Part shown: one piece after another, positions 1,519-61,419 of the stretch
Numbering within the stretch: position 1 is the stretch's first letter
Layout of the letters: each line of letters opens with the position of its first letter
Virus record (IMG/VR): IMGVR_UViG_3300036863_000086
Span: 1 to 64,000 of that record
Length of the DNA: 64,000 nt
Source: a virus
Strand: one strand, 5' to 3'
Made by a program: the position numbers and the translations under genes
The notes under the pieces: model-generated
What the model was told of the DNA's origin: nothing
Database searches by the model: none
What the model saw: only the letters and a program-made list of their open reading frames with translations

Positions 1519-3804
1519 ATGCAGAAGGCTCCCGGCGCGCAATGTGACGAGTGTCCATTGCGCGCCGAACCTTTCGTAGGAACATACGGCCCACTAGACG
1601 CCAAAATCGCTGCAATTGGCGAAGGCCCTGGGCTCCAAGAAGTCGTGTACAAAAAGCCATTCGTCGGAAATTCTGGTAAGCTACTGAAATCAGTCCTGAA
1701 GCACGCTGGGATCGATCCAGAAAAAGAGGTATGGTACACGAATGTCGTCCTCTGCCGACCGCCCGACAATGCAACCCCAACAAAAGAGGCGATTTATTGT
1801 TGCTCGGGGCGGCTTGAAAACGAACTGCAACAAAGGGCACCAGAGAAAATTCTCGCTCTGGGTGGCACTGCCGCAAAAGCGCTGCTTAACACTTCGACTG
1901 GAATCATGGCGCTCCGGCCTGGCCCACCAAGACCGCTGGCTGCGCACAACTGTGAAATTATCCCGACAGTTCACCCGGCAGCATGCCTTCGGAGTGGAGA
2001 CTACTTTCCATTTCTTGTTACCGACATCGGCAAAATCAATTTCGAACCATCAAGCTGGACGCCACCTCGATACCTCGTACCCCACTCGGAAAGGACGGCT
2101 TTATTCGCCATCCGATGGCTCAGCAAATTCAACGAACTCTCAGTAGACATCGAGGTAGCAGTTGAGAAAGACCTGGCATTCGAACACCCATCCAAATACA
2201 GCATTCTCTGCATTGGGATCGCTCCATCAGAGTCTGCTGCGATTGTTCTTCCGAGCAGCGTTCTTTGGTTTCAAACTGTTATTCAAGCTCTTCGAGGGCT
2301 CCTCAAGAAATCGAAGATAATTGCGCAGAACGGGAAGTTCGATATCCCTGGTCTCTCAAGGATCGGGGATTTTGAACTTTACGCAGATACTATGTTAATG
2401 CACTACGCTTCGGATGAGCGTGGTGGAATCCACGGCTTGAAAGTGATGGCTCGTGAGTATCTCGGAGCACCCGACTACAGTGCAAGAATTAAACAATACA
2501 CAAAAGGTTTGGACGGTTTCGCGGGTATACCGCGTGACCTCCTGCATGAATATAATGCCTACGATGCCACACTCACGTTCGGACTATACAGAATTTTTGA
2601 ACGGCAACTACATCATTCAGGTCTGTCCAGTCTGCATGCATTCTTGGTTCAAGCAAGCAATGCCCTAATCCAAGTAGAAACCGAGGGGGTGCTTGTCAAT
2701 GAGGACTATCTGCAAGAACTTGATCGGGACTATCAGGATCGACTTTCGTCACAGGAGAGCGCACTTCAGAAATGGGTACAGAACCCTCGGTCCACTCTTC
2801 AAGTTCGATCCGCTCTCGCTGAACTTGGAGTTGAAACGGCATCAACAGATGTGTCCCATTTGCAGGCTATACACGCATCCATGGGACAATACGAGGGTTC
2901 ACCCGAAGCAGCAGCAGTCAGCGAATTTGTTTCGGCTTTATTAAAATATCGAAAGGACCAGAAGGTACATGGAACCTACATCAAGGGCATCGCCAAAAGG
3001 CTCTACAACGGACGTTGCTATCCTACGTATCTTCTACATGGAACTACCACAGGGCGCCTCTCGTGTAGAAATCCAAACCTTCAGAACATTCCGCGCGGAT
3101 CGGCGATACGCAGACTTTTTGTTGCAAGTCCTGAAAATAGTCTGGTTCAAGCCGATTATAAGCAGGGAGAGCTGCGAGTCATTGCTTGCCTTAGTCGGGA
3201 GCAGTTTCTCGCTGATATTTTCAACGAAAAGCGTGACCTACTCAGCGAAATTGCTCGACGATTCTATGGTCCTAACTTTACAAAAGAGCAGCGAGTAAGA
3301 GCAAAGAACCTCGCGTACGGAAGCTGCTACGGGGCAGAGCCTCTTCGGCTCACAGCATATGAGGGCGTTACCCTTCAAGAAGCTGCTAAGTTTCAATATG
3401 AATTCTTTGAATTCATGCCAAACGTACGACGTTGGCAAGTTGATACACGAGAGCAAGTCTTGAAAGGCAACGACCTCATCACGGCATTCGGGCGCCACCG
3501 ACGGTACACGCTGATCACGAGAGAGAATAAAAAGGATATACTGAATGAATGCCTTGCTTTTGTCCCGCAGAGTACGCTTAGTGATATCTGTTTGTCTAGT
3601 CTTATCCGTCTGGTACATGAGGGGTTTCACCCCCGCATTACTGTCCATGATAGTATTGTGGTTGAGTGCCACAATAGCCAGGTTGCACATACAAGTGAAG
3701 CTCTTTCGCAGATTCTCCCGCAAGTAGCCAAAGAAACTTTCGACGACTATGTTCCATTCCCTGTCGACGTAAAAGCTGGAAGGAGTTGGGGTGACCTTGA
3801 GTGA
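1519..3804 (+). CDS. Uracil-DNA glycosylase (family 4-like) / DNA polymerase I fusion
   Basis: 761 residues in three parts. Residues 1-180 resemble family 4 uracil-DNA glycosylase: a CDEC pair, VVLCRPPDN and a later CC that could complete a 4Fe-4S site, GEGPG near the active site, and HPAAC as the second motif. Residues 210-385 look like a DEDD 3'-5' exonuclease (LSVDIE, AQNGKFDIPGL, YNAYDA). The rest is a family A polymerase: ADYKQGELRVIA (motif A), RVRAKNLAYGSCYG (motif B), VHDSIVVE (motif C). Likely the phage replicative polymerase with built-in uracil recognition. A GAAGGGACA site precedes ATG 1519. Confidence 0.9.
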   Translation: MQKAPGAQCDECPLRAEPFVGTYGPLDAKIAAIGEGPGLQEVVYKKPFVGNSGKLLKSVLKHAGIDPEKEVWYTNVVLCRPPDNATPTKEAIYCCSGRLENELQQRAPEKILALGGTAAKALLNTSTGIMALRPGPPRPLAAHNCEIIPTVHPAACLRSGDYFPFLVTDIGKINFEPSSWTPPRYLVPHSERTALFAIRWLSKFNELSVDIEVAVEKDLAFEHPSKYSILCIGIAPSESAAIVLPSSVLWFQTVIQALRGLLKKSKIIAQNGKFDIPGLSRIGDFELYADTMLMHYASDERGGIHGLKVMAREYLGAPDYSARIKQYTKGLDGFAGIPRDLLHEYNAYDATLTFGLYRIFERQLHHSGLSSLHAFLVQASNALIQVETEGVLVNEDYLQELDRDYQDRLSSQESALQKWVQNPRSTLQVRSALAELGVETASTDVSHLQAIHASMGQYEGSPEAAAVSEFVSALLKYRKDQKVHGTYIKGIAKRLYNGRCYPTYLLHGTTTGRLSCRNPNLQNIPRGSAIRRLFVASPENSLVQADYKQGELRVIACLSREQFLADIFNEKRDLLSEIARRFYGPNFTKEQRVRAKNLAYGSCYGAEPLRLTAYEGVTLQEAAKFQYEFFEFMPNVRRWQVDTREQVLKGNDLITAFGRHRRYTLITRENKKDILNECLAFVPQSTLSDICLSSLIRLVHEGFHPRITVHDSIVVECHNSQVAHTSEALSQILPQVAKETFDDYVPFPVDVKAGRSWGDLE

Positions 3805-23910: not shown

Positions 23911-23919
23911 AAACTCTCC

Positions 23920-24399
23920 CTAATAACGGTCGCCCATGCGGAACTTGATATCTTCCGAACCTGCACCAGCTCCAACAATAAAACCAAGCGCGTCGACAAT
24001 TGTATCGCTGCCAGTTAAATCGTTCGGATAGTATGCAGGGTCATTCGCTGTGATCGGCGTTGGATAATCAACAAGAACAATCGTGCCGTTCAGTAGCGCC
24101 GTAATAATGCTCTCTGCCCATACTTCGAGCTTGTTGGCGTATTTATTTCCAGCATCGTCCTCTTCGGAGTACAGCTTGTTGTAGCGGTTCGCTGCAACCT
24201 TCGCGGAAATAACTACGCGAACAAGATTCGGCGTCGTGGCGTTATCAACCCAAGTTGCGACATTGTAGATTTGGCCCAGTTTCGCCAGGACATATGTCGA
24301 GACGTTGAATTCCTCTGGCAGCGTATCAGTTGCAGGCAGCTCAAGTTTCCCGGCGTCAAGCCAGGATTGAACTTCCGCAATCGTGACATGCAGCGCCAC
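23920..24399 (-). CDS. Head-tail connector protein
   Basis: 159 residues, mostly helical at the N-terminus (VTIAEVQSWLDAGKLELP, VVISAKVAANRYNKLYSEE), which is the usual plan of head-completion connector proteins following the capsid gene. No catalytic motif. Assigned by fold plan and position. Confidence 0.5.
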   Translation of the reverse strand: MALHVTIAEVQSWLDAGKLELPATDTLPEEFNVSTYVLAKLGQIYNVATWVDNATTPNLVRVVISAKVAANRYNKLYSEEDDAGNKYANKLEVWAESIITALLNGTIVLVDYPTPITANDPAYYPNDLTGSDTIVDALGFIVGAGAGSEDIKFRMGDRY

Positions 24400-36815: not shown

Positions 36816-37904
36816 TTACTGTGCCTTAAAGACAAGTCCCTGCAAAACTGCAAGGAAATCTGTTTTTAGCTGTTCATGGTCGATGGTCACATCAATAGGT
36901 ACGCCCTGATTCTCTAGCGCAGTCACAACCGCCTGCGCGAGAATTGCCGGGTCAGTTGTCGATGCAGTCAAAGCTGCCAAAATCTTTGACTCATCGTCAG
37001 ACAACGTACTTGTTAGGCCATTAATCTTTGCCTCAATGCTCTGTAGTCGGCTAGCAAGGATCGAGAACGCTCGAACATTATTACTCTGGCCAAACTGAAT
37101 GATGTCCATAGCGCCGCTGATACGAAACAGCTCACTAACACCAGCTTTAACCTGAGCCTTGACATTATCCAAGTCAGTTGTATCGAGTGGCATATCTCCT
37201 CCTACAGGCCACTGACCGTAATCAGCTTTAACCGATCGATCGATATCACACTGTATACCGTCGATTGTCACGTGAAACTTGCCGCTCGCACCATCTGGGA
37301 ACTGCTGAATGTGTGTTGCTGAATGCCATTGTTTGTCTGACCAGGCATACGTCTGCCAAAACCACTTTGCTACTCCATCACCAACTGCCCAATCAACGAC
37401 ATAATACGAGCCGTACACACCAACTCGATCTACTCCCAAAACGCTAACAGCACCCTGAAGGAAACTACGAGCCAGCTTATAAGTATCGAAAGTATTAAAG
37501 TCCACAGAGTCAGCACTAAAGTAAATCGGCCGATCGTCTGGTAACCCGCAGAGCTTTGCCATTGTAAGCGAGTTCCTAGCCGCTTCCACACCGCGTGAAT
37601 ACCCACTCGTCATCGCCGTCGCACTAGTTTCCCAATTTGTAAACATCTGAATGCCAGCATCGATGTACGCTTGGACCTCCTTTGGCCGTAAGCACTTTGT
37701 TGGCCATGTTGATGGATCAGTTAATGTAACTGGACTTGTCCATCTATCAGCAATGTAATGACTACAAAATTTCACTCCCGCCGCTACTAAGGCAGATGCC
37801 GAAGGCGGCGGTCGTGATGACTGGTCAATCCCAAACATAAACATTGCTCCATCATAGTTGAGGACAGTGTCGTCGTATATTATAGGAGCATCGTAAACAG
37901 TCAT
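36816..37904 (-). CDS. Endolysin with DUF1906 (GH25-like) domain
   Basis: 362 residues from ATG 37904 (ATGA overlap with the peptidase gene). Residues 20-240 match the DUF1906/Rv2525c-like glycoside-hydrolase-like fold: FMFGIDQSSRPPPSAS, HYIADRW, RPIYFSADSVDF, GVYGSYYVVDW, IQCDIDRSV. The C-terminal 120 residues are helical and may bind the wall or multimerise. A presumed murein-cleaving lysin. Confidence 0.75.
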   Translation of the reverse strand: MTVYDAPIIYDDTVLNYDGAMFMFGIDQSSRPPPSASALVAAGVKFCSHYIADRWTSPVTLTDPSTWPTKCLRPKEVQAYIDAGIQMFTNWETSATAMTSGYSRGVEAARNSLTMAKLCGLPDDRPIYFSADSVDFNTFDTYKLARSFLQGAVSVLGVDRVGVYGSYYVVDWAVGDGVAKWFWQTYAWSDKQWHSATHIQQFPDGASGKFHVTIDGIQCDIDRSVKADYGQWPVGGDMPLDTTDLDNVKAQVKAGVSELFRISGAMDIIQFGQSNNVRAFSILASRLQSIEAKINGLTSTLSDDESKILAALTASTTDPAILAQAVVTALENQGVPIDVTIDHEQLKTDFLAVLQGLVFKAQ

Positions 37905-38677
37905 CGGACAATAAACTGTTTGAGGTCGACACCAGTTAACTGCTCGTATGTCCGCATGCGCATACGGAAGTAGCCACTCTCGCCCCAACCCGTTCCCCAT
38001 GAGTTCGCAAAAACAATCGTCGATGAGTAGAAGTTAACCTCATCGACTTCGATCGCAAGTGCCTCAACTTCATGGCCACCAGCAATGCCAGAAGATTGCC
38101 ATTTCGGATCGGCGTCAATGTAGCTGTTTCGCTCTAGGTAAAAGAATGCGTTATACCAAGGCATGCCAACAAGCACTGGGCCATCTTGCAGAAGCCTCGC
38201 AAAGCCATGTGGCGTTCTCGCCCAACGATAGCCAGTAATTGTTTTGCGCGTCTTTAGTACCTTGCAAACGGCAAGGCCAGAACTACCAGTATCATCGGGC
38301 GGATAGTAGCCAGCATACGGATCTCGATTTGTTGCGTCTGAATAGAGCCGCACCGCAAAATCCTCAGTCAGCTCGTCAAGGCCAAACTGCCCAAGTGTAT
38401 TTTCGGCAAGCAGCTTTGTCGCAAATGGCTCCGTTCCTAATGTGCCAGTGCCCGCGTTACCAGTGCATGAGCCAAGATTGCCTTGATCGAGAATCGAAAC
38501 TTTGCGCTCCCAATGAATCGACTTCAACGGCTGTCCGAACATCGCTTCAGTGTCGTTCTCAACCATGTACGCAAGTGAGCGTGCATCGAGCCAAAGATTT
38601 CGACCAAGCCGACGTGTTGTTGTCTCAATGCCTCGATCGAAAATCTGGTAGAGCATTCCCTGACTGAGCAGCGACAT
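37901..38677 (-). CDS. Papain-like (C1A) cysteine peptidase
   Basis: 258 residues with the full papain set: ILDQGNLGSCTGNA (oxyanion Gln and catalytic Cys), GGHEVEALAI (catalytic His) and FANSWGTGWGESGYFRM (catalytic Asn). No signal peptide. Directly upstream of the endolysin, so a lysis-associated peptidase is likely, though a maturation role cannot be excluded. Confidence 0.8.
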   Translation of the reverse strand: MSLLSQGMLYQIFDRGIETTTRRLGRNLWLDARSLAYMVENDTEAMFGQPLKSIHWERKVSILDQGNLGSCTGNAGTGTLGTEPFATKLLAENTLGQFGLDELTEDFAVRLYSDATNRDPYAGYYPPDDTGSSGLAVCKVLKTRKTITGYRWARTPHGFARLLQDGPVLVGMPWYNAFFYLERNSYIDADPKWQSSGIAGGHEVEALAIEVDEVNFYSSTIVFANSWGTGWGESGYFRMRMRTYEQLTGVDLKQFIVR

Positions 38678-44148: not shown

Positions 44149-44743
44149 AGCAAAGCCTGGCCGGAGATGAAATCCGTACACTGCGTGCGAGCCATCATAG
44201 AAGTGAAAACCATGGCACCGAGTGCGAGCCATTGGCTGTGTGAATTCCCATTTGCATCGTGCGAGCCATTTAGAACGTGAAATCCAAGCATATCGTGCGA
44301 GCCAAGATAATTGCGAAATCCATCCATCTCGTGCGAGCCAAGGTAATATGTGCAACCCAAATCATGCGTGCGAGTCATTGAGCGAATGCAACCCATCGCC
44401 TAGCGTACGAGCCATTGCTTACTGTGAAACCCAGGTGTAGCGTGCGAGCCAAGGTATGTATGAAACCCAAGCTAAAGGTGCGAGCCAGTATCGTTGGTGC
44501 AACCCCAAGTGTAGCGTGCGAGCCAAGGTAATGTGTGAAACCCAAGTGTAGCGTGCGTTAGCCGCAAGAACGATGAAATCCGTCCATCTCGTGCGAGCCA
44601 AACAGAGCGTGAAATCCAAGTTTACCGTGCGAGCCATTGGATCGTGTGAAGCCCTAAGCAATGGTGCGAGCCGTTATACCCGTGAAAACCAAATGGAGGT
44701 GCGAGTCAAAGATAAAGTGAAGCCCAGAATCAAGGTACGAGCC
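44149..44743 (+). repeat. TIGR array 1 (about 16 dual-spacer units)
   Basis: Unit of 36 nt: box A GTGCGAGCC (9), spacer A (9-10), box B GTGAAACCC or GTGAAATCC (9), spacer B (9). About 16 box A and 16 box B copies; variants GTACGAGCC, GTGCGAGTC, GTGCAACCC. It begins with a decayed box A (GCAAAGCC, 44150-44157) and ends with GTACGAGCC at 44735-44743, just before the tas ribosome site. Spacers differ but some recur (B: AAGTGTAGC twice, AGGTGTAGC once; A: AAGGTAATAT/AAGGTATGT/AAGGTAATGT). This matches TIGR arrays giving 36-nt guide RNAs. Confidence 0.88.
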
Positions 44744-44744
44744 A

Positions 44745-44758
44745 AACTCCAAGGAGTT
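44745..44758 (+). promoter_or_regulatory. Palindrome carrying the tas ribosome-binding site
   Basis: AACTCC-AA-GGAGTT. The right half contains the Shine-Dalgarno AAGGAG for GTG 44762, and the left half, directly abutting the last array box, can pair with it. Processing of the last guide could decide whether the site is free. Confidence 0.5.
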
Positions 44759-44761
44759 GCA

Positions 44762-45592
44762 GTGACGACAACAGAGCAAGGAATTGTCGTTCCAACGTTG
44801 CCAGAGATCGAAACGCTGGAGCGGAAAATTCGCACAACAGCAGCACAGCTTCCGCCAGAGGAAGCACGACTGCTGGTGCTGCTGTACTACCAATTGCAAG
44901 AACACCGGATCGCCACCGGTAACCAGGCAAAAAGCGGTGGTGACAACCCAATCCTGATGCACTATCACCAGCAGCTCTCTTCACTGGAACGCAGCCTACC
45001 GCCGCTGCTCGGCAAATGGGCACAGTCCCAAACTGCTGGACAGTGGTCCCTGTCACAGGTCGGCGTCGGTCCTGTTATGGCCGCAGGTCTGCTCGCGCAT
45101 ATCGACATTGTCAAATTCCCTTCGGTGTCACACCTGTGGTCATTCGCTGGCCAGAACCCACTTGCAAAATGGGGGAAAGGCCAGAAGCGGCCGTGGAACG
45201 CACAACTCAAGGTGCTGGTCTGGAAAATCGGCGACTCATTTGTCAAGCTCAACAAGCACCCTGACTGCTACTACGGTCATATCTACGCGAATCGCAAGGC
45301 GATCGAAGTCTCTCGCAATGAGCACGGTGCGTTTGCGGAGCAGGCAGCAGAGATTCTTGAGGTTCGTAAAATCAAGGACGAGCGGACGCTGTCCTTCTAC
45401 AAGGCCGGCAAGCTGCCACCGGGGCACATCGATATGCGCGCTCGGCGTTACGCTTCCAAGCGGTTCCTCTCACACTATTTCGTCGTTGCGTATGAGGCAG
45501 CGCACGGCGAGCCTGCTCCTCGTCCATATGTAGAAACAGTGCTCGGGCACACCGACATCGACGCACCGCCAAACTGGCCATTGACCAAGTAG
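44762..45592 (+). CDS. tasA: Tas protein, nuclease-less TasA type (Nop / Transposase_20-like)
   Basis: 276 residues from GTG 44762 (AAGGAG six bases upstream). Earlier in-frame starts would translate the array itself and are rejected. Residues 10-110 are helical, probably coiled coil. Residues 110-165 hold the helix-hairpin-helix signature LSQVGVGPVMAAGLLAHIDI, then HLWSFAGQNP, shared by IS110-type Transposase_20 and the Nop domain of box C/D RNP proteins. The C-terminus is basic and ends PPNWPLTK. No RuvC (DEDD) or HNH part is present. In TIGR-Tas systems such proteins bind 36-nt guides with two spacers and recognise DNA; here binding without cutting is predicted. Confidence 0.82.
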   Translation: MTTTEQGIVVPTLPEIETLERKIRTTAAQLPPEEARLLVLLYYQLQEHRIATGNQAKSGGDNPILMHYHQQLSSLERSLPPLLGKWAQSQTAGQWSLSQVGVGPVMAAGLLAHIDIVKFPSVSHLWSFAGQNPLAKWGKGQKRPWNAQLKVLVWKIGDSFVKLNKHPDCYYGHIYANRKAIEVSRNEHGAFAEQAAEILEVRKIKDERTLSFYKAGKLPPGHIDMRARRYASKRFLSHYFVVAYEAAHGEPAPRPYVETVLGHTDIDAPPNWPLTK

Positions 45593-45599
45593 CAATTAA

Positions 45600-46304
45600 T
45601 TACTTGCCAAATGGTGATCGTGAAACCCATATCCTTCGTGCGAGCCAAGAACGTAATGAAACCCAAATCGTAGGTGCGAGCCTCTATAAGGGTGAAACCC
45701 ATAATTCCTGTGCGAGCCATGTCGCGCTGAAACCCGAGCGGTATGTGCGAGCCCGTCTGATCGTGAAACCCATATCATGCGTGCGAGCCATAGCAGCTAT
45801 GAAACCCATGCCCTTTGTGCGAGCCTCTATGAGGGTGAAATCCGCAATCACTGTGCGAGCCACCAGCAAAGTGCAAATCCGTACTTCATGTGCGAGCTAC
45901 AGGTTTTAGTGCAACCCAATATAGTCGTGCGAGCCACTACAGAGGCGAAACCCATACTCCAGGTGCGAGCCATTGCAGTCATGAAACCCATGCCTCTTGT
46001 GCGAGCCACCGTGGTTCGGTGAAATCCGTACGTCGAGTGCAAGCCAAGACGTGTATGAAACCCTGATGTAGCGTGCGAGCCGGAACACAGGTGAAACCCT
46101 ATGGCTCAGTGCGAGCCATACTTTCTGTGAATCCCAATCCATGCGTGCGAGCCATTGTCTTCGTGAAGCCCAAGCATTCAGTGCGAGCCATCAACAGTAA
46201 TGAAACCCAAATTAGGCGTGCGAGTCCAAGCATAGGGTGAAGTCCGTAGCCTTGGTGCGAGCCAAATTCTCAGTGAAACCCATAATGTTCGTGCGTTTTC
46301 ACCC
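45600..46304 (+). repeat. TIGR array 2 (about 18 dual-spacer units)
   Basis: Same 36-nt design as array 1, 18 box A copies, starting eight bases after the tas stop with a decayed box A (TTACTTGCC) and ending with a decayed GTGCGTTTTC followed by ACCCAAAACA. Box B here is mostly GTGAAACCC or ATGAAACCC. Related spacers: A TCTATAAGG/TCTATGAGG; B ATGCCCTTT/ATGCCTCTT. Spacers most often begin with A. Confidence 0.88.
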
Positions 46305-46338
46305 AAAACATGCCCAAATTCGTCGAAACTAGGAGGAA

Positions 46339-46557
46339 ATGTCACTATTTGCTGACCTAACATACCTGCGTCGCAGCCGACATATTTTCGTCGACATGCG
46401 TGGCGGGACATCGCACACCTACTTCGGCGAGGTTTCCCAGGAGCGCGGGCTTCTTGTTATAACAACTCGAACAGGGTTCTTTGGGCTACGACGGCAAATT
46501 ACAAAAATCCCACACACCTCCATCGAATCCTGGTCCTACTGGACCACCCCGTATTGA
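46339..46557 (+). CDS. Small protein between arrays 2 and 3
   Basis: 72 residues; AGGAGG at perfect spacing before ATG 46339. Basic, beta-rich (RRSRHIFVDMRGG, RGLLVITTRTGFFGLRR). Not recognised. First of four genes that split the arrays. Confidence 0.55.
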   Translation: MSLFADLTYLRRSRHIFVDMRGGTSHTYFGEVSQERGLLVITTRTGFFGLRRQITKIPHTSIESWSYWTTPY

Positions 46558-46569
46558 GGAGGAGGAGAA

Positions 46570-46794
46570 GTGTTCGAAGGCCCAATCAAGAAATTGGAAA
46601 CAATACTCGACAAAACATCGAAAGAGATCAACGAGGGAAAATACTGGGAATATATCGTTGATACCATAGGGCGCCCAGAAGCTCTCCAACCACTCCTCAC
46701 CTCACGCGGTAAGGATCGTTGGGAACTTGTCAGCGCGGTCAACGACACACTGTTTTTCAAGCGCCCAATGCAAAAAGGGGCAAAGAATTCATGA
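46570..46794 (+). CDS. Small protein, DUF4177-like
   Basis: 74 residues from GTG 46570 with GGAGGAG upstream. KYWEYIVDTIGR and SRGKDRWELVSAVNDTLFFK resemble DUF4177-type small alpha/beta proteins, a family of unknown function. ATGA overlap with the next gene. Confidence 0.5.
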   Translation: MFEGPIKKLETILDKTSKEINEGKYWEYIVDTIGRPEALQPLLTSRGKDRWELVSAVNDTLFFKRPMQKGAKNS

Positions 46795-47036
46795 CCACAG
46801 GCACCATGAAGACGATGGATCAGTCTGGTGACACCGAAATCAAGTGGGACCGCAGCGATCCAGACTCAATTGCAATCGCTCGGGAAGCATTTAATGAGGC
46901 TACTCAGCGCCGTTCGGAAGGCGGCAAGGGCTATCTGGCGTATCGCGTTGAGCGTGGTGGTAAGGGTGCAGTCATTCGTGACTTCGATCCTGCCGCCGAG
47001 CGGATCATCCTTGCGCCGCCTATGGCCGGTGGTTAA
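46791..47036 (+). CDS. Conserved actinobacterial/phage hypothetical protein
   Basis: 81 residues from ATG 46791. IKWDRSDPDSIAIAREAF, KGYLAYRVERGGKG and FDPAAERIILAPPMAGG follow a pattern recurrent in actinobacteria and their phages (from memory). Function unknown; its partner gene follows. Confidence 0.6.
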   Translation: MTTGTMKTMDQSGDTEIKWDRSDPDSIAIAREAFNEATQRRSEGGKGYLAYRVERGGKGAVIRDFDPAAERIILAPPMAGG

Positions 47037-47049
47037 TTCAGAGGAATAT

Positions 47050-47610
47050 ATGCCGTACCGCGTCTATGCTTCCGAAGCGACAGCCACCACAATTAACATG
47101 AGCGCAACAACAAACACCACCACAGATCCTGGCAACTATTACATCTACTTCAATACCGGCTATCGATACCCGAGCGCCGAGGAACTACGTCGTCTGCAAC
47201 CACAAGCATACGAATTTGCCAACGCCACGCAACAGTACCGGCGTTGGCAACAGCAACAGACAGCGCATGAACGACAGGCAGCACGTGAACATGAGAAGGA
47301 AGCACAGGAAGCACAAAAGCGTGCAGAAGTGCTCCTGCTCTCCGTTCTCGACGCAAGGCAAGCTGAACAGTGGGCAACGACCCACGAAGTCGACGTGGTC
47401 GGCTCAGAAGGGCACAACTACCGTCTGACTCGCGCTCGTCAAGGTGGCGTATTCCGCCTTGGGTCACGAAACCGTCGTACGCATTCGCTGTGTATCCACC
47501 ACGACTACGCAATTCCTATTGAGGACCAAATCGCAGCGCAGAAGCTCCAGATCGAAACGGACGAAGCCGAATTCTGCCGTATCGCAAATGAGAGCCCAGT
47601 ACTCGCGTAA
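47050..47610 (+). CDS. Conserved hypothetical protein with coiled coil
   Basis: 186 residues from ATG 47050 (GAGGAA upstream). A coiled coil (QQTAHERQAAREHEKEAQEA) leads to EVDVVGSEGHNYRLTRARQ and LCIHHDYAIPIEDQIAAQKL, a C-terminal domain common in actinobacterial genomes and often paired with the preceding gene type. Function not known. Array 3 begins two bases after its stop. Confidence 0.6.
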   Translation: MPYRVYASEATATTINMSATTNTTTDPGNYYIYFNTGYRYPSAEELRRLQPQAYEFANATQQYRRWQQQQTAHERQAAREHEKEAQEAQKRAEVLLLSVLDARQAEQWATTHEVDVVGSEGHNYRLTRARQGGVFRLGSRNRRTHSLCIHHDYAIPIEDQIAAQKLQIETDEAEFCRIANESPVLA

Positions 47611-47611
47611 C

Positions 47612-49590
47612 AACTTAGCCATTGCTAGCGGTGAAGCCCATGCCTTTTGTGCGAGCCACTAGCCCATGTTAAGCACATACCGTGCGTGCGAGCTATAGGT
47701 AGCTGTGAAGCCCATGTCTTTTGTGCGAGCCACCATCCTAGTTAATAACAAAGTGTACGTGCGAGCCACCACGAGCGTCAAATCCCATAGGGGCCATGCG
47801 AGCCAATAATGCGTGTGAAATCCGTCGACAAAGTGCGAGCCAAGATACTTATGAAACCCGTACCATCTGTGCAAGCCTCTGAATGCGGTTGAAACCATAC
47901 CATCTGTGCGAGCCGTACCCTTAGTGAAATCCTCTTCGGCGGTGCGAGCCACACTCATTTGTGAAACCCCAGTACAACGTGCGAGCTACAAATGGTGTGA
48001 AACCCAAATTTCCCGTGCGAGCCACTCCCCGTTGTGCAAGCCCGAGATGTGAATGCGAGCCATTGAAACGGTAAAATCCAATTCCTTGGTGCGAGCCATT
48101 GAACCCGTAAAATCCGTATCTCTCGTGAAGTCCGGGTTGCATGTGCGAGCCACAAGTTCAGTGAAATCCATGTAGTACGTGCGAGCCACTCCCTGTTGTG
48201 CAACCCGGAGGTGCAGTGCGAGCCACGGCAATGCATGTAACCCAAATTTCCAGTGCGAGCCATATCGTTTGTGCAACCCAATAGAACCGTGCGAGCCATT
48301 GAATCTGAGAAACCCAATTCCTTGGTGCGAGCCATGTTCAGTGCGAAATCCAAGTGCAACGTGCGCGCCAGTCTGCGTGTGAAACCCATACCATGTGTGC
48401 GAGCCATTACAGTGAGTAAAATCCACTATCTTGGTGCGAGTCATTACAGTGAGTGAACCCCAATGGATCTGTGCGAGCCATTATTCCCGTGAAATCCAAT
48501 ATCTCAGTGCGGGCCAAGATGCTTGCGAAACCCATAAAGTCAGTGCGAGCCATTGCCGTCATGAAATCCATTGACTCAGTGCGAGCCATTACTTCCGTGA
48601 AATCCGTACGTAGCGTGCGAGCCATCCCAGTCGTGAAGTCCATAGTTGGTCTGCGAGTCAAGCTAAGCGTGCAACCCAACATGGCCGTGCGAGCCATTGT
48701 CGTCATGAAAACCAGGGTTAACGTGCGAGCCATTGAAACAGTGAAACCAGTCCTTAACGCGCATCCCATTACGTAAGCCAACAGCCGCGTGACATCCATA
48801 CTACTCGTGCGAGCCAGCTCCTAAGTGAAAACCGTACCCCTTGTGCGCACGCCTATAGTGAAACCCTGTTCGATGTGCGAGCCGTTGTTATGGTGAAATC
48901 CCTACCACATGTGCGAGCCAAAGCAATTGTGCAACCCAATGTCGGTCTGCGAGCCAAAAGCAAGGTGAAAACCGTGCCCTATAGTGCGAGCCATGTCTGA
49001 AATGAAATCCACAGGGGTCTGTGCGAGCCACAGGCAATGGTGCAAACCGAAGTCGAAGTGCGAGCCCCGCGCGACAGTGAAATCCATATAAGCGGTGCGA
49101 GCCGTACCATTAGTGAAATCCCATTCGTCCGATGCGAGCCATGCGATATGCGAAACCCATAGCAGGCATGCGAGCCAACGGCAGGGCGAAAACCGTACCC
49201 CATAGTGCGTGCATAAGCCATGTCTTCTCTGAAATCCAGGGATCTCGTGCGGGCCAAGGTGTGTGATGAAACCGACCCCAACGTGCGAGCCATTAGCAAG
49301 GTGAAACCCGTACTCCTGGTGCGAGCCATTACTTCCGTGAAATCCTCCGTCCTTGGTGCGAGCCATCGTCAAGGTGAACTCCATTCCAATTGTGCAAGCC
49401 ATTCAAGCAGTGAAAACCCACCCCAAGAGTGCGAGCCATATTGCGCGTGAAACCCGCCGCCCTTCGTGCGAGCCACATCGTCGGTGAAACCCAAGCATAT
49501 TGTGCGAGCCAACGAGCGTCTGCAATCCATATTGCGGGTGCGAGCCAGTCACAACGTTCAACCCGTGGGCATTGTGCGTCCATCAATCCA
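47612..49590 (+). repeat. TIGR array 3 (about 52 dual-spacer units)
   Basis: About 1.97 kb of 36-nt units, starting with a decayed box A (AACTTAGCC) and ending in a decayed GTGCGTCC followed by ATCAATCCAAAAACA, like the end of array 2. Box A is GTGCGAGCC in most units (also ATGCGAGCC, GTGCGGGCC, CTGCGAGCC); box B is more variable (GTGAAATCC, GTGCAACCC, GTAAAATCC, ATGAAATCC). A few positions are irregular (double box B near 48113-48132, decayed units near 48760-48785 and 48843-48852). Repeated spacers include A ATTACTTCC twice with different B partners and B AATTCCTTG twice. Confidence 0.88.
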
Positions 49591-49996: not shown

Positions 49997-50734
49997 ATGG
50001 TCGTTGCTGCCAGAAATTGGGAGACGAATGCTGCCTTCTGGATTCGTATCATTCGAGAAAGGCTTGATCCCTACCGCACAGAACTGACTGATGATGCCGT
50101 GCTCAACGAGGTTGGTCCTGCCGAGGGACGGAGAATTCTCGATGCAGGCTGCGGTGAGGGATATATGTCGCGGCTGCTCGCACATCGAGGTGCCAGTGTT
50201 GTAGGAATCGATTCTTGCCAAGCATTGGTTCATGCAGCCCAAGATCACACCACAGAAGGTTTGAGTATTAGCTACGAGGTGGGCGACGTTGGAGCACTGC
50301 CACTAGCTAATACTCAATTCGATATTATCGTATGCAATCACCTCATCAACGACCTTCCCGATCCAGCTATCCCGTTCCAAGAGTTTGCTCGCGTCCTAAA
50401 ACCACGCGGGCGGCTTGTTATCCTTATGCTTCACCCGTGCTTCTCTATCCCCAGATCGACGGAACAGCGATCCAATGGAGGACTGATCAGTTCGGAGTAC
50501 TTTAGGGTGCGACGGATTGAAAAGCACTTCGAAATTGGCGGGGTTACATCGCCCACAACGGTCGTTGTATGGATAAGATCCATAGAGTCTTATAGTGAGC
50601 TGTTGTTCGGTGCCGGCTTCACTATAACTGGACTGCAAGAGCCACGCCCAACAGAGCAGTTACTGCAAGACCCTTGGTGGCGTGTGAGCTTCTCCCAACC
50701 TCGTTTTTTGTTGATAACTGCCAAGAGACGTTGA
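49997..50734 (+). CDS. Class I SAM-dependent methyltransferase
   Basis: 245 residues. RRILDAGCGEGYMSRLL is the SAM-binding motif I, followed by VVGIDSC (motif II acid), DVGALPLANTQFDIIVC (motifs III/IV) and RVLKPRGRLVI. The C-terminus resembles UbiE/Trm9-type methyltransferases acting on small molecules or tRNA. No DNA-methylase motif (DPPY or NPPF) is seen. Bracketed by two paralogous genes. Confidence 0.85.
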   Translation: MVVAARNWETNAAFWIRIIRERLDPYRTELTDDAVLNEVGPAEGRRILDAGCGEGYMSRLLAHRGASVVGIDSCQALVHAAQDHTTEGLSISYEVGDVGALPLANTQFDIIVCNHLINDLPDPAIPFQEFARVLKPRGRLVILMLHPCFSIPRSTEQRSNGGLISSEYFRVRRIEKHFEIGGVTSPTTVVVWIRSIESYSELLFGAGFTITGLQEPRPTEQLLQDPWWRVSFSQPRFLLITAKRR

Positions 50735-51653: not shown

Positions 51654-51764
51654 ATGGACATGTTTCCCAAACTGCTTCACATGCTCGTGACGGTCGGGTC
51701 GGGCGGATGGCTCACTCTGACCGTGTGGGGCGAGTACGCCAGACTGTGGATCTCGGCTAGGTAG
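51654..51764 (+). CDS. 36-aa hydrophobic peptide
   Basis: ATG 51654 with AAGGAGG upstream. KLLHMLVTVGSGGWLTLTVW is hydrophobic enough for one membrane helix. Could be a toxin-like or membrane-anchoring peptide; no homology recognised. Confidence 0.45.
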   Translation: MDMFPKLLHMLVTVGSGGWLTLTVWGEYARLWISAR

Positions 51765-51770
51765 GACAAG

Positions 51771-51839
51771 GCGCCTATACCGGGCAGGCCGGGCAGGCCG
51801 GGCAGGCCGGGCAGAGGGTTCGATCCCCTCGATAGGCAC
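51771..51839 (+). pseudogene. tRNA-like remnant with 9-nt repeats in place of D and anticodon arms
   Basis: GCGCCTAT (51771-51778) pairs with ATAGGCAC (51832-51839) at 7 of 8 positions, and GAGGG-TTCGATC-CCCTC (51814-51830) is a perfect T arm. Between them, instead of D and anticodon arms, nearly four copies of CCGGGCAGG occur. Either a decayed tRNA expanded by slippage or a tRNA-derived site (for example an attachment site). Confidence 0.5.
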
Positions 51840-56691: not shown

Positions 56692-56961
56692 GTAGAAAGC
56701 TGGAAATGAGGGTTTCTCGCTCCAACTGGTAACGATGCAAAGGAATGCATGATGGCCGAGAACCCTGAGAACCCCAAGGATGGTTTGGCGTCGATTGTCG
56801 ACGTGAAGAACTTCTTCGAGTACGAGAACATCTCGAAGTTCCGCGCCGACTGGCAGAAGTTGTCCGACGTTGACAAGGTGCAGCTCCGGCTGGGCATCGG
56901 CGAGGGTACCCTGACCTACTGAGTTTTTCCACGCGAGGAACCTTCATTTCCAGCTTTCTAC
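56692..56961. repeat. Inverted-repeat cassette 5
   Basis: Arms 56692-56720 and 56933-56961, 27 of 29 complementary. Brackets one 56-codon gene. Confidence 0.85.
56752..56922 (+). CDS. Small hypothetical protein (56 aa)
   Basis: ATG 56752 with AAAGGA seven bases upstream (an ATG at 56749 is alternative). Pro/Asn-rich start then a helical part (VKNFFEYENISKFRADWQKL). The reading frame fills the space between the repeat arms, which supports it. Confidence 0.55.
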   Translation: MAENPENPKDGLASIVDVKNFFEYENISKFRADWQKLSDVDKVQLRLGIGEGTLTY

Positions 56962-60442: not shown

Positions 60443-60637
60443 GTGCAATTAATTGGGAACAGTAACGGCGAGAATCACGATAGCTGAGAGCCCGTAAAAG
60501 GGAATATACCAATATCGTGATTAGGGCACGATCGCCCTGGGCCGGTCGGTTCAATCCGGCTGGATCGCAACCAAACAGCGGAAGAACAGAGCCAGCTTAA
60601 CCGCTGGCATCCGGTTACTGTTCCCAATTGATTGTAC
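60443..60637 (+). ncRNA. Inverted-repeat cassette 10 (non-coding, putative structured RNA)
   Basis: Arms 60443-60466 and 60614-60637, 22 of 24 complementary. The 147-base interior has no gene but stacks of hairpins: AATCACGATA/TATCGTGATT, GGGC/GCCC, GCCGG/CCGGC and GCCAGC/GCTGGC. Confidence 0.65.
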
Positions 60638-60649
60638 GACAAATTAGAA

Positions 60650-60749
60650 TTGAGATAGGGAACGCACCCGGACGGCATAACCCTGCTAGGTTTGCTAAGG
60701 GTCCGCCGTAGCAGCGGAAACGGGATATAGAGGGACCGCCCTATCTCAA
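60650..60749 (+). ncRNA. Cassette 11: putative structured RNA
   Basis: Perfect 11-bp terminal stem (TTGAGATAGGG/CCCTATCTCAA) enclosing 78 bases with an inner ACCCT/AGGGT stem. No coding potential. Confidence 0.55.
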
Positions 60750-60865: not shown

Positions 60866-60947
60866 AAGGACCACAGGGATGCAGGTCTACAACCGCATTT
60901 CGACAAAACCCAAATGGTGAGGTTTCGTCGTTATCCCTGTGGTCCTT
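60866..60947 (+). ncRNA. Cassette 12: putative structured RNA
   Basis: Perfect 15-bp terminal stem (AAGGACCACAGGGAT and complement at 60933-60947); inside, CGACAAAACC pairs with GGTTTCGTCG (9 of 10). Only 52 bases between the arms. Confidence 0.6.
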
Positions 60948-61276: not shown

Positions 61277-61419
61277 AAGAAACTTGGGCTAGCCGCGTAC
61301 TCCACTACGGTAATGGGAGAGCTATACGAAAGTGCCCGGCAACCTGAAAGCGCCTTACGGTGTATCCACCTTACGGTGCATCCATGTCGACGCCGGTAAG
61401 CCTTCCGCCCAAGTTTCTT
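61277..61419 (+). ncRNA. Cassette 13: putative structured RNA between tRNAs
   Basis: A perfect 13-bp terminal stem (AAGAAACTTGGGC with 61407-61419) encloses 117 bases with no gene, including a repeated CCTTACGGTG..TCCA element (two copies about 20 bases apart). It fills the space between tRNA-Arg and tRNA-His. Confidence 0.6.

What the first reader, a model, noticed from the sequence alone, without database searches (positions are those of the whole stretch)
44149..49590. Giant phage-borne TIGR-Tas system: about 90 dual-spacer units of exactly 36 nt
Seen: three arrays in which two conserved 9-nt boxes (GTGCGAGCC and GTGAAACCC) alternate with two variable 9-nt spacers, 36 nt per unit, around a Nop/Transposase_20-like protein. 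Known: TIGR-Tas systems produce 36-nt guide RNAs with two short spacers and use Tas proteins with a Nop-like domain. The boxes share G-T-G-x-x-A-x-C-C, so each unit is a pseudo-dimer of 18-nt halves, like the C/D and C'/D' halves of guide snoRNAs. Inference: this is a large array set in a probable actinophage.
Basis: partly seen in the sequence, partly recalled or inferred. Interest (0 to 1): 0.95.

Follow-up and report, generated by a model that had tools for sequence, protein, structure and literature searches.

The report
Giant phage TIGR-Tas guide-RNA arrays
This phage carries an unusually large set (88 in the window, about 128 in its whole record) of two-part guide RNAs of the recently described TIGR-Tas kind beside a nuclease-free Tas protein, and some of the guides, here and in a sister phage, sit as small stem-closed or tRNA-flanked units that suggest how such guides might be cut out.

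Summary
Three arrays (16 + 19 + 53 = 88 units) of alternating edge (GTGCGAGCC) and loop (GTGAAACCC) repeats flank a 276-aa Nop-domain protein without a nuclease domain (TasA type). It matches solved TasR and TasH by sequence (E 1e-16, 1e-12) and fold (Z 16 and 19). "Exactly 36 nt" is only partly right: about half the units are 36 nt, a third 37. Independent support: all 12 viral contigs in which a DNA-pattern search found a true array also encode Tas, and the loop repeat shows compensatory G-C to U-A changes at the box C/D pair. So it is a TIGR-TasA system.
New or unusual: (1) size, about 128 units in 7 arrays, four of them 22-28 kb from the only tas gene found; (2) three of those (1, 6 and 2 units) are each closed by a perfect 11-12-bp stem; (3) a syntenic sister phage with different repeats has about 90 units scattered genome-wide, many 3-17 nt from tRNA genes, suggesting tRNA-processing enzymes could free them; (4) arrays evolve by half-unit duplication and recombination. 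No targets were found for 739 guides in 2.6 Mb of phage DNA. Processing, DNA binding and function are inferred, not shown.

The parts
44153..44743 (+). TIGR array 1, 16 units, begins with 5'-truncated edge (AAGCC), ends with a full edge 7 nt before the tas ribosome-binding site
44553..44563 (+). split edge repeat inside array 1 (GTGCG-TT-AGCC), looks like a join of two array segments
   Evidence: sequence
44751..44756 (+). AAGGAG, probable ribosome-binding site of tas; array 1 and tas look co-transcribed
   Evidence: sequence; several relatives show the same array-RBS-tas order
44762..45592 (+). tasA-type gene (276 aa, GTG start): Nop domain with coiled coil, no nuclease domain
45602..46295 (+). 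TIGR array 2, 19 units, ends in 3'-truncated edge GTGCG
46339..46557 (+). small ORF between arrays 2 and 3, no relative in the other TIGR phage records
46570..46794 (+). small ORF between arrays 2 and 3; one weak match, in G015, far from its tas
46791..47036 (+). small ORF between arrays 2 and 3 (internal ATG of a listed ORF)
   Evidence: its conservation was not validly tested, because the query was in the wrong frame
47050..47610 (+). small ORF between arrays 2 and 3 (186 aa); weak match in G013, about 4 kb from its tas
47617..49578 (+). TIGR array 3, 53 units, begins AGCC, ends GTGCG; several broken or split edges
48759..48779 (+). broken edge region inside array 3 (GCGCATCCC...AAGCC)
48843..48853 (+). 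split edge inside array 3 (GTGCG-CAC-GCC)
49205..49219 (+). split edge inside array 3 (GTGCG-TGCATA-AGCC)

Best explanation
A phage-encoded TIGR-TasA system. The arrays are transcribed; array 1 leads into the tasA gene. A host RNase, with TasA bound, cuts the long transcript in the middle of each edge repeat into roughly 36-nt tigRNAs (AGCC - spacer A - GUGAAACCC - spacer B - GUGCG). A TasA dimer holds each tigRNA in a figure-eight through the UG (box D) and CCA (box C) motifs of edge and loop, and pairs spacer A with one DNA strand and spacer B with the other at adjacent sites. Lacking a nuclease, it binds, opens and bends the target and most likely blocks transcription or replication there. 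The phage has about 128 such guides in seven arrays; three small arrays are closed by their own stems and act in trans as stand-alone box-C/D-like guide RNA genes. Shown: array anatomy, Tas identity, absence of a nuclease domain, box C/D pair covariation, stems, a single tas gene in the record. Inferred from the TIGR-Tas paper: processing, dual-strand pairing. Purely inferred: blocking function, action in trans, targets.
For: Sequence: E 1.2e-16 to TasR (9mty) and 1.5e-12 to TasH (21kl); as a 14-member profile 1e-60 and 2e-73 (that alignment includes the CGphi29 TasH itself). Fold: AF2 pLDDT 82.5, pTM 0.79; TasH Z 19.3, TasR Z 16.4, IS621 Z 12.2. Anatomy: UG...CCA in both repeats; 5'- and 3'-truncated edges at array ends as in Faure et al. 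2025, PMC12045711. A blind DNA search for the repeats returned 14 contigs: the 12 with true arrays all carry tas, the 2 without arrays do not. Covariation: box D base versus first box C base G-C 167, U-A 4, A-U 1, against 5 other combinations, in loops taken only by fixed spacing. Stems of 11-12 bp around the 1-, 6- and 2-unit arrays; 57 arrays of other phages have at most 8 bp and the other phages at most 6. One tas only.
Against: No RNA or binding data. No target found for 739 guides in 2.6 Mb of phage DNA or in the own genome; the host genome could not be tested. A third of the units are 37 nt and some edges are broken, so part of the array may be decaying. No convincing terminator at the array ends, which the published arrays usually have.
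Confidence: 0.93

Rival explanations
1. The protein is an IS110-family transposase (its only Pfam match) and the repeats are an unrelated tandem repeat.
For: Weak Transposase_20 match, 19.4 bits against a cut-off of 21.3; PHROG 4285 is labelled transposase.
Against: The model aligns to IS621 only from IS621 residue 125 on, so the DEDD catalytic domain is absent; TasR and TasH match far better; arrays with these repeats co-occur with this protein in 12 of 12 contigs.
Confidence: 0.01
2. The 36-nt repeats are coding (12-aa repeats of a surface protein).
For: 36 is a multiple of 3, and open frames run through parts of the arrays on both strands.
Against: 28 unit steps are 37 nt and break the frame; repeat columns are conserved at all codon positions and spacers vary at all positions; base-pair covariation at the RNA level.
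Confidence: 0.01
3. TIGR-TasA in which the guides bind RNA (for example host mRNA or rRNA) rather than DNA, as box C/D sRNAs do.
For: Box C/D-like, stem-closed single unit; tRNA-interleaved units in the sister phage; no DNA targets found.
Against: TasR cuts ssDNA and dsDNA but not RNA (PMC12045711); no linked methyltransferase: the MTase at 49997-50734 is not kept beside tas in relatives.
Confidence: 0.08
4. A decaying, inflated array: duplications without selection, most guides without function.
For: Near-duplicate spacers in excess (A-A 16 against 4.2, B-B 26 against 4.5 expected), irregular spacing, broken edges.
Against: 61 of 88 edges perfect over 5 kb; box C/D changes are mostly compensatory; the sister phage keeps a giant set of its own with different repeats.
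Confidence: 0.1

Closest known systems
TIGR-TasA with dual-repeat arrays (FpTIGR of Flavonifractor plautii; Faure et al. 2025, PMC12045711)
   Same: Solo Nop-domain protein, alternating edge and loop repeats with UG...CCA, 9-nt spacers, truncated edges at array ends, phage location.
   Different: About 128 units instead of mostly 5-15; seven arrays, four of them 22-28 kb from tas (the paper searched 5 kb around tas); a third of units 37 nt; no clear terminators.
TIGR stem-loop arrays (Peromyscus gut TasA locus, same paper)
   Same: Dual-spacer units closed by palindromic stems, box C/D-like.
   Different: There every unit has its own stem and the Tas belongs to other clades without dual-repeat arrays; here one phage with one TasA has ordinary dual-repeat arrays plus small arrays of 1, 2 or 6 units each closed by a single stem.
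TasR of Thermoproteota (9mty) and TasH of Salicola phage CGphi29 (9w04, 21kl)
   Same: Nop fold, coiled coil; closest solved relatives.
   Different: They carry RuvC or HNH nuclease domains; this protein has none.
IS110/IS621 bridge-RNA recombinases
   Same: Nop-like RNA-binding half (Z 12.2).
   Different: No DEDD catalytic domain, arrays instead of one bridge RNA.
Box C/D snoRNPs; dicistronic tRNA-snoRNA genes of plants (the latter from my own knowledge)
   Same: Two short guides between C and D boxes; terminal stem in the small arrays; tRNA-adjacent units in the sister phage.
   Different: No fibrillarin or L7Ae seen (not searched for specifically); DNA is the known target of the TIGR family.

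Membership tests
TIGR-Tas | Alternating two repeats of 8-12 nt with ~9-nt spacers in a long array | tested here: met
   88 units in window; column profile
TIGR-Tas | Edge and loop repeats both begin UG and end CCA | tested here: met
   GTGCGAGCCA and GTGAAAYCCA; pair covariation
TIGR-Tas | Array starts with 5'-truncated and ends with 3'-truncated edge | tested here: met
   AAGCC/AGCC starts of arrays 1 and 3, GTGCG ends of arrays 2 and 3; array 1 ends with a full edge and the start of array 2 is degenerate (TTGCC); relatives alike
TIGR-Tas | Adjacent Nop-domain Tas protein | tested here: met
   co-occurrence
TIGR-Tas | Array followed by a rho-independent terminator | tested here: inconclusive
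   Simple scan finds none at array ends
TIGR-Tas | Processing to 36-nt tigRNAs | not testable with these tools
   needs small-RNA sequencing
TIGR-Tas | Tandem-spacer binding of both DNA strands | not testable with these tools
   needs binding assays; target search in phage DNA negative
TasA subtype | Solo Nop domain without RuvC or HNH | tested here: met
   276 aa; alignment to TasR starts at TasR residue 112-119 and to TasH at about residue 52-66, after most of their nuclease domains
IS110 transposase | N-terminal DEDD catalytic domain | tested here: not met
   alignment to IS621 begins at IS621 residue 125, model residue 29
Box C/D snoRNP | Fibrillarin and L7Ae partners | not tested
   no dedicated search; the nearby methyltransferase matches Methyltransf_11

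The most novel reading that the evidence does not exclude
In this phage lineage tigRNAs are also encoded as small stand-alone genes far from tas: stem-closed arrays of 1-6 units, and in the sister phage units lying 3-17 nt from tRNA genes, often between two of them. These would be released by tRNA- and stem-processing enzymes (RNase P, RNase Z/E, RNase III) and loaded in trans on one TasA, making phage counterparts of box C/D sRNA genes and of tRNA-snoRNA transcripts.
Probability: 0.45. Interest if true: 0.85.

Novelty: new variant of a known kind. Interest (0 to 1): 0.72.

Why it matters
What TIGR systems do, how tigRNAs are matured and how arrays grow are open questions named in the discovery paper. 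This lineage offers handles on two of them. tRNA-flanked and stem-closed single units make a specific maturation hypothesis testable in E. coli. A clade of related phages with shared, reshuffled and chimeric units shows growth by half-unit duplication and recombination, with no adaptation gene in sight. It also shows that surveys limited to the neighbourhood of tas can miss a large part of the guides.

Tried and rejected
Own-genome targets in four geometries with gaps 0-4: same as shuffled pairings. 310 guides against 20 phage records, then 739 guides against 2.58 Mb of phage DNA with decoys: one exact match against 0 for decoys, 7 one-mismatch matches against 10; treated as chance. Scans of the genome collection for the array pattern and for an alignment of Tas proteins: no hit, so no named host. 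A pattern search of cellular genomes for a conserved guide was not possible for a virus record. Methyltransferase as a fibrillarin-like partner: dropped, not conserved beside tas. Stems as a general feature of TIGR arrays: not so, 57 arrays of other phages have at most 8 bp. tRNA adjacency as general: not so, seen only in the sister phage. A first search with the single Tas protein in viral contigs found nothing; the DNA pattern of the array was what worked.
Full report
WHAT IS THERE. The window is bases 1-64,000 of a 72,476-bp virus record. Between 44.1 and 49.6 kb on the + strand lie three arrays in which two repeats alternate about every 18 nt: edge GTGCGAGCC(A) and loop GTGAAAYCC(A). Exact edge matches are confined to this region: 61 here, none elsewhere in the window. 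A curated parse gives 16 + 19 + 53 = 88 units. Most spacers are 9 nt (64 of 88 for A, 69 of 88 for B), many are 10; 45 unit steps are 36 nt and 28 are 37, so 'exactly 36' holds for only about half. [quoted passage not shown] array 2 starts with a degenerate TTGCC), and arrays 2 and 3 end with the 3'-truncated edge GTGCG. Array 1 ends in a full edge directly before AAGGAG and the GTG start of the protein gene, an order also seen in several relatives. Some edges inside arrays 1 and 3 are split between GTGCG and (A)GCC by a few bases, which looks like joins of array segments.

THE PROTEIN. The 276-aa product has only a sub-threshold Transposase_20 match in Pfam. It matches PHROG 4285 (labelled transposase, E 3.5e-42) and, among solved structures, TasR (9mty, E 1.2e-16) and TasH (21kl, E 1.5e-12). 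An AlphaFold2 model from 12 family members (pLDDT 82.5, pTM 0.79) aligns best with TasH (Z 19.3), TasR (Z 16.4) and then IS621/IS110 (Z 12.2). The alignments start after the nuclease domains of those proteins, so this is the nuclease-free TasA type.

INDEPENDENT TEST OF THE LINK. A search of 2.9 million viral contigs for edge-spacer-loop, without using the protein, gave 14 contigs. The 12 that hold a real array all encode a Tas protein; the two chance matches do not. A stricter pattern gave 55 stretches; 44 of the 45 loci then examined hold arrays and 34 have tas in the stretch held. Units per such locus reach at most 28, against 88 in this window; the discovery paper gives 5-15 as usual.

RNA-LEVEL EVIDENCE. 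In the TasR structure Watson-Crick pairs join box D (UG) and box C (CCA). In 177 loops picked only because two edges lie exactly 36 nt apart, the second base of box D and the first of box C are G-C in 167, U-A in 4 and A-U in 1, with 5 other combinations. All four loops with A at the box C position have U at the box D position. Some of these loops may be related by duplication, so they are not four fully independent events.

BEYOND THE WINDOW. The record holds array 4 at about 67,212-68,366 (31 loops) and three small arrays: 1 unit at 68,719-68,782, 6 units at 68,852-69,101 and 2 units at 72,148-72,242. I count about 128 units in all. Only one tas gene is found in the record, so these arrays, 22-28 kb away, would have to be served in trans. 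The three small arrays are each enclosed by a perfect inverted repeat of 11-12 bp with unrelated sequences (GGCCAAGGAAA, GACCGTCGTGAC, GGAATACAGAG); in the last the arms touch the half-edges AGCC and GTGCG directly. RNA folding z-scores are -3.8, -3.3 and -2.5. The 57 arrays have at most 8 bp and those of the other phages at most 6. A stem that closes half-edge, guide, loop, guide, half-edge is the layout of a box C/D RNA. Three nt upstream of the single unit's stem is a tRNA-like element (7-bp acceptor, T-arm, apparently no D-arm; fold z -3.3) that ARAGORN and Rfam do not call.

SISTER PHAGE. The phage nearest by terminase (63% identity; record of 103,156 bp, here G021, loci L218-L223) is syntenic with this one. 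It lacks these repeats and has another TIGR system: edge CGGCGCCTA, loop CGAAAATCTA, mostly 37-nt period, and a divergent Tas (PHROG 4285 E 2.3e-23; TasR E 8e-6; hhalign 97.6%). With at most two loop mismatches 91 units are found on the + strand and none on the - strand; with three, 103 against 4. The latter form 36 clusters, 20 of them with a tRNA end within 40 nt, usually 3-17 nt (random placement: mean 1.8, maximum 8 in 2000 trials). 13 of 29 short inter-tRNA intervals hold units, including single units between two tRNAs in gaps of about 50 nt. The random-placement test ignores that tRNAs and units may cluster together for other reasons, but the few-nt linkers on both sides are direct sequence facts. 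The edge core GGCGCC is self-complementary, so a lone unit is closed by about 7 bp; that fold is not better than shuffles in two of three cases tested. One further single unit (23,916-23,974) has a 12-bp stem (z -4.9). I did not see tRNA adjacency in other TIGR contigs.

HOW ARRAYS CHANGE. Among this phage's guides, spacers with at most one mismatch are in excess within the same role (A-A 16 against 4.2 expected, B-B 26 against 4.5) but not across roles (A-B 13 against 8.8, within the shuffles), and the partner spacer is usually unrelated. In six contigs with Tas proteins about 45% identical to ours, whose DNA is mostly 82-97% identical to each other outside the most diverged pieces, units are shared, lost, reordered and point-mutated, and one unit in L197 joins spacer A of one unit to loop and spacer B of another. 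This fits duplication and recombination at half-unit level. It does not exclude selection by changing targets.

TARGETS. Searches with the published geometry (spacer A next to the reverse complement of spacer B, gap 0-2; orientation worked out from the described 3' overhangs) and its mirror, with shuffled pairings as decoys, show no excess in the own genome, in 20 TIGR phages, or in 2.58 Mb of phage DNA. The host is unknown and was not searched. Structural proteins hint at an actinobacterial host; this is weak.

MECHANISM. The best-supported account is a TIGR-TasA RNP that binds DNA at guide-matched sites and blocks rather than cuts. Identity is well supported; function is inference. The most useful new idea, that part of the guides are freed by tRNA-type or stem-type processing, rests on position and sequence alone.

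STATUS. The system is a member of a known family by every feature I could test apart from the terminator, which was inconclusive. Its size, trans-located arrays and stem-closed or tRNA-flanked units make it a new variant. Whether the supplementary tables of the discovery paper already list these contigs could not be checked. A full-text search of open papers for 'tigRNA' found five papers: that one, a review of it, two on other topics that mention it, and one unrelated.

Noticed in passing
window 1519-3804: Family A DNA polymerase fused at its N-terminus to a uracil-DNA-glycosylase-like domain (Pfam UDG, exo1, PolA).
   Followed up: no
window 56692-56961, 60451-60629, 60650-60749, 60866-60947, 61277-61419; record 65293-65439, 69113-69255: Long perfect inverted repeats (11-18 bp) around 50-230-nt loops in the tRNA-bearing part; 32 repeats of 11 bp or more in the record against 6.4 expected. 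Some loops share a stretch like AGGGTAATGAGAG. No Rfam match in the part searched: possible undescribed stem-closed RNAs.
   Followed up: partly
window 49997-50734: SAM-dependent methyltransferase (Methyltransf_11) downstream of array 3; not conserved beside tas in relatives.
   Followed up: partly
window 51746-51839: ARAGORN calls a tRNA-Arg here but Rfam does not; it overlaps a CCGGGCAGG tandem repeat, probably a false call.
   Followed up: no
window 37901-38677 and 36816-38000: Papain-family protease ORF overlapping in another frame the start of an Rv2525c-like lysin ORF.
   Followed up: no
L006, L012, L016: TasA proteins of these phages have a cysteine-rich, zinc-ribbon-like insertion in the Nop domain.
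   Followed up: no
G005 and G009 (L010, L015): tas frames reported with one in-frame stop (TAG, TGA).
   Followed up: no
PHROG 4285: This phage protein family, labelled transposase, matches the Tas proteins of both phages here and is probably a Tas family mislabelled.
   Followed up: partly
L224 (12-kb contig from the same sample as the sister phage): Carries several scattered single units of the GGCGCC type and no tRNA.
   Followed up: partly
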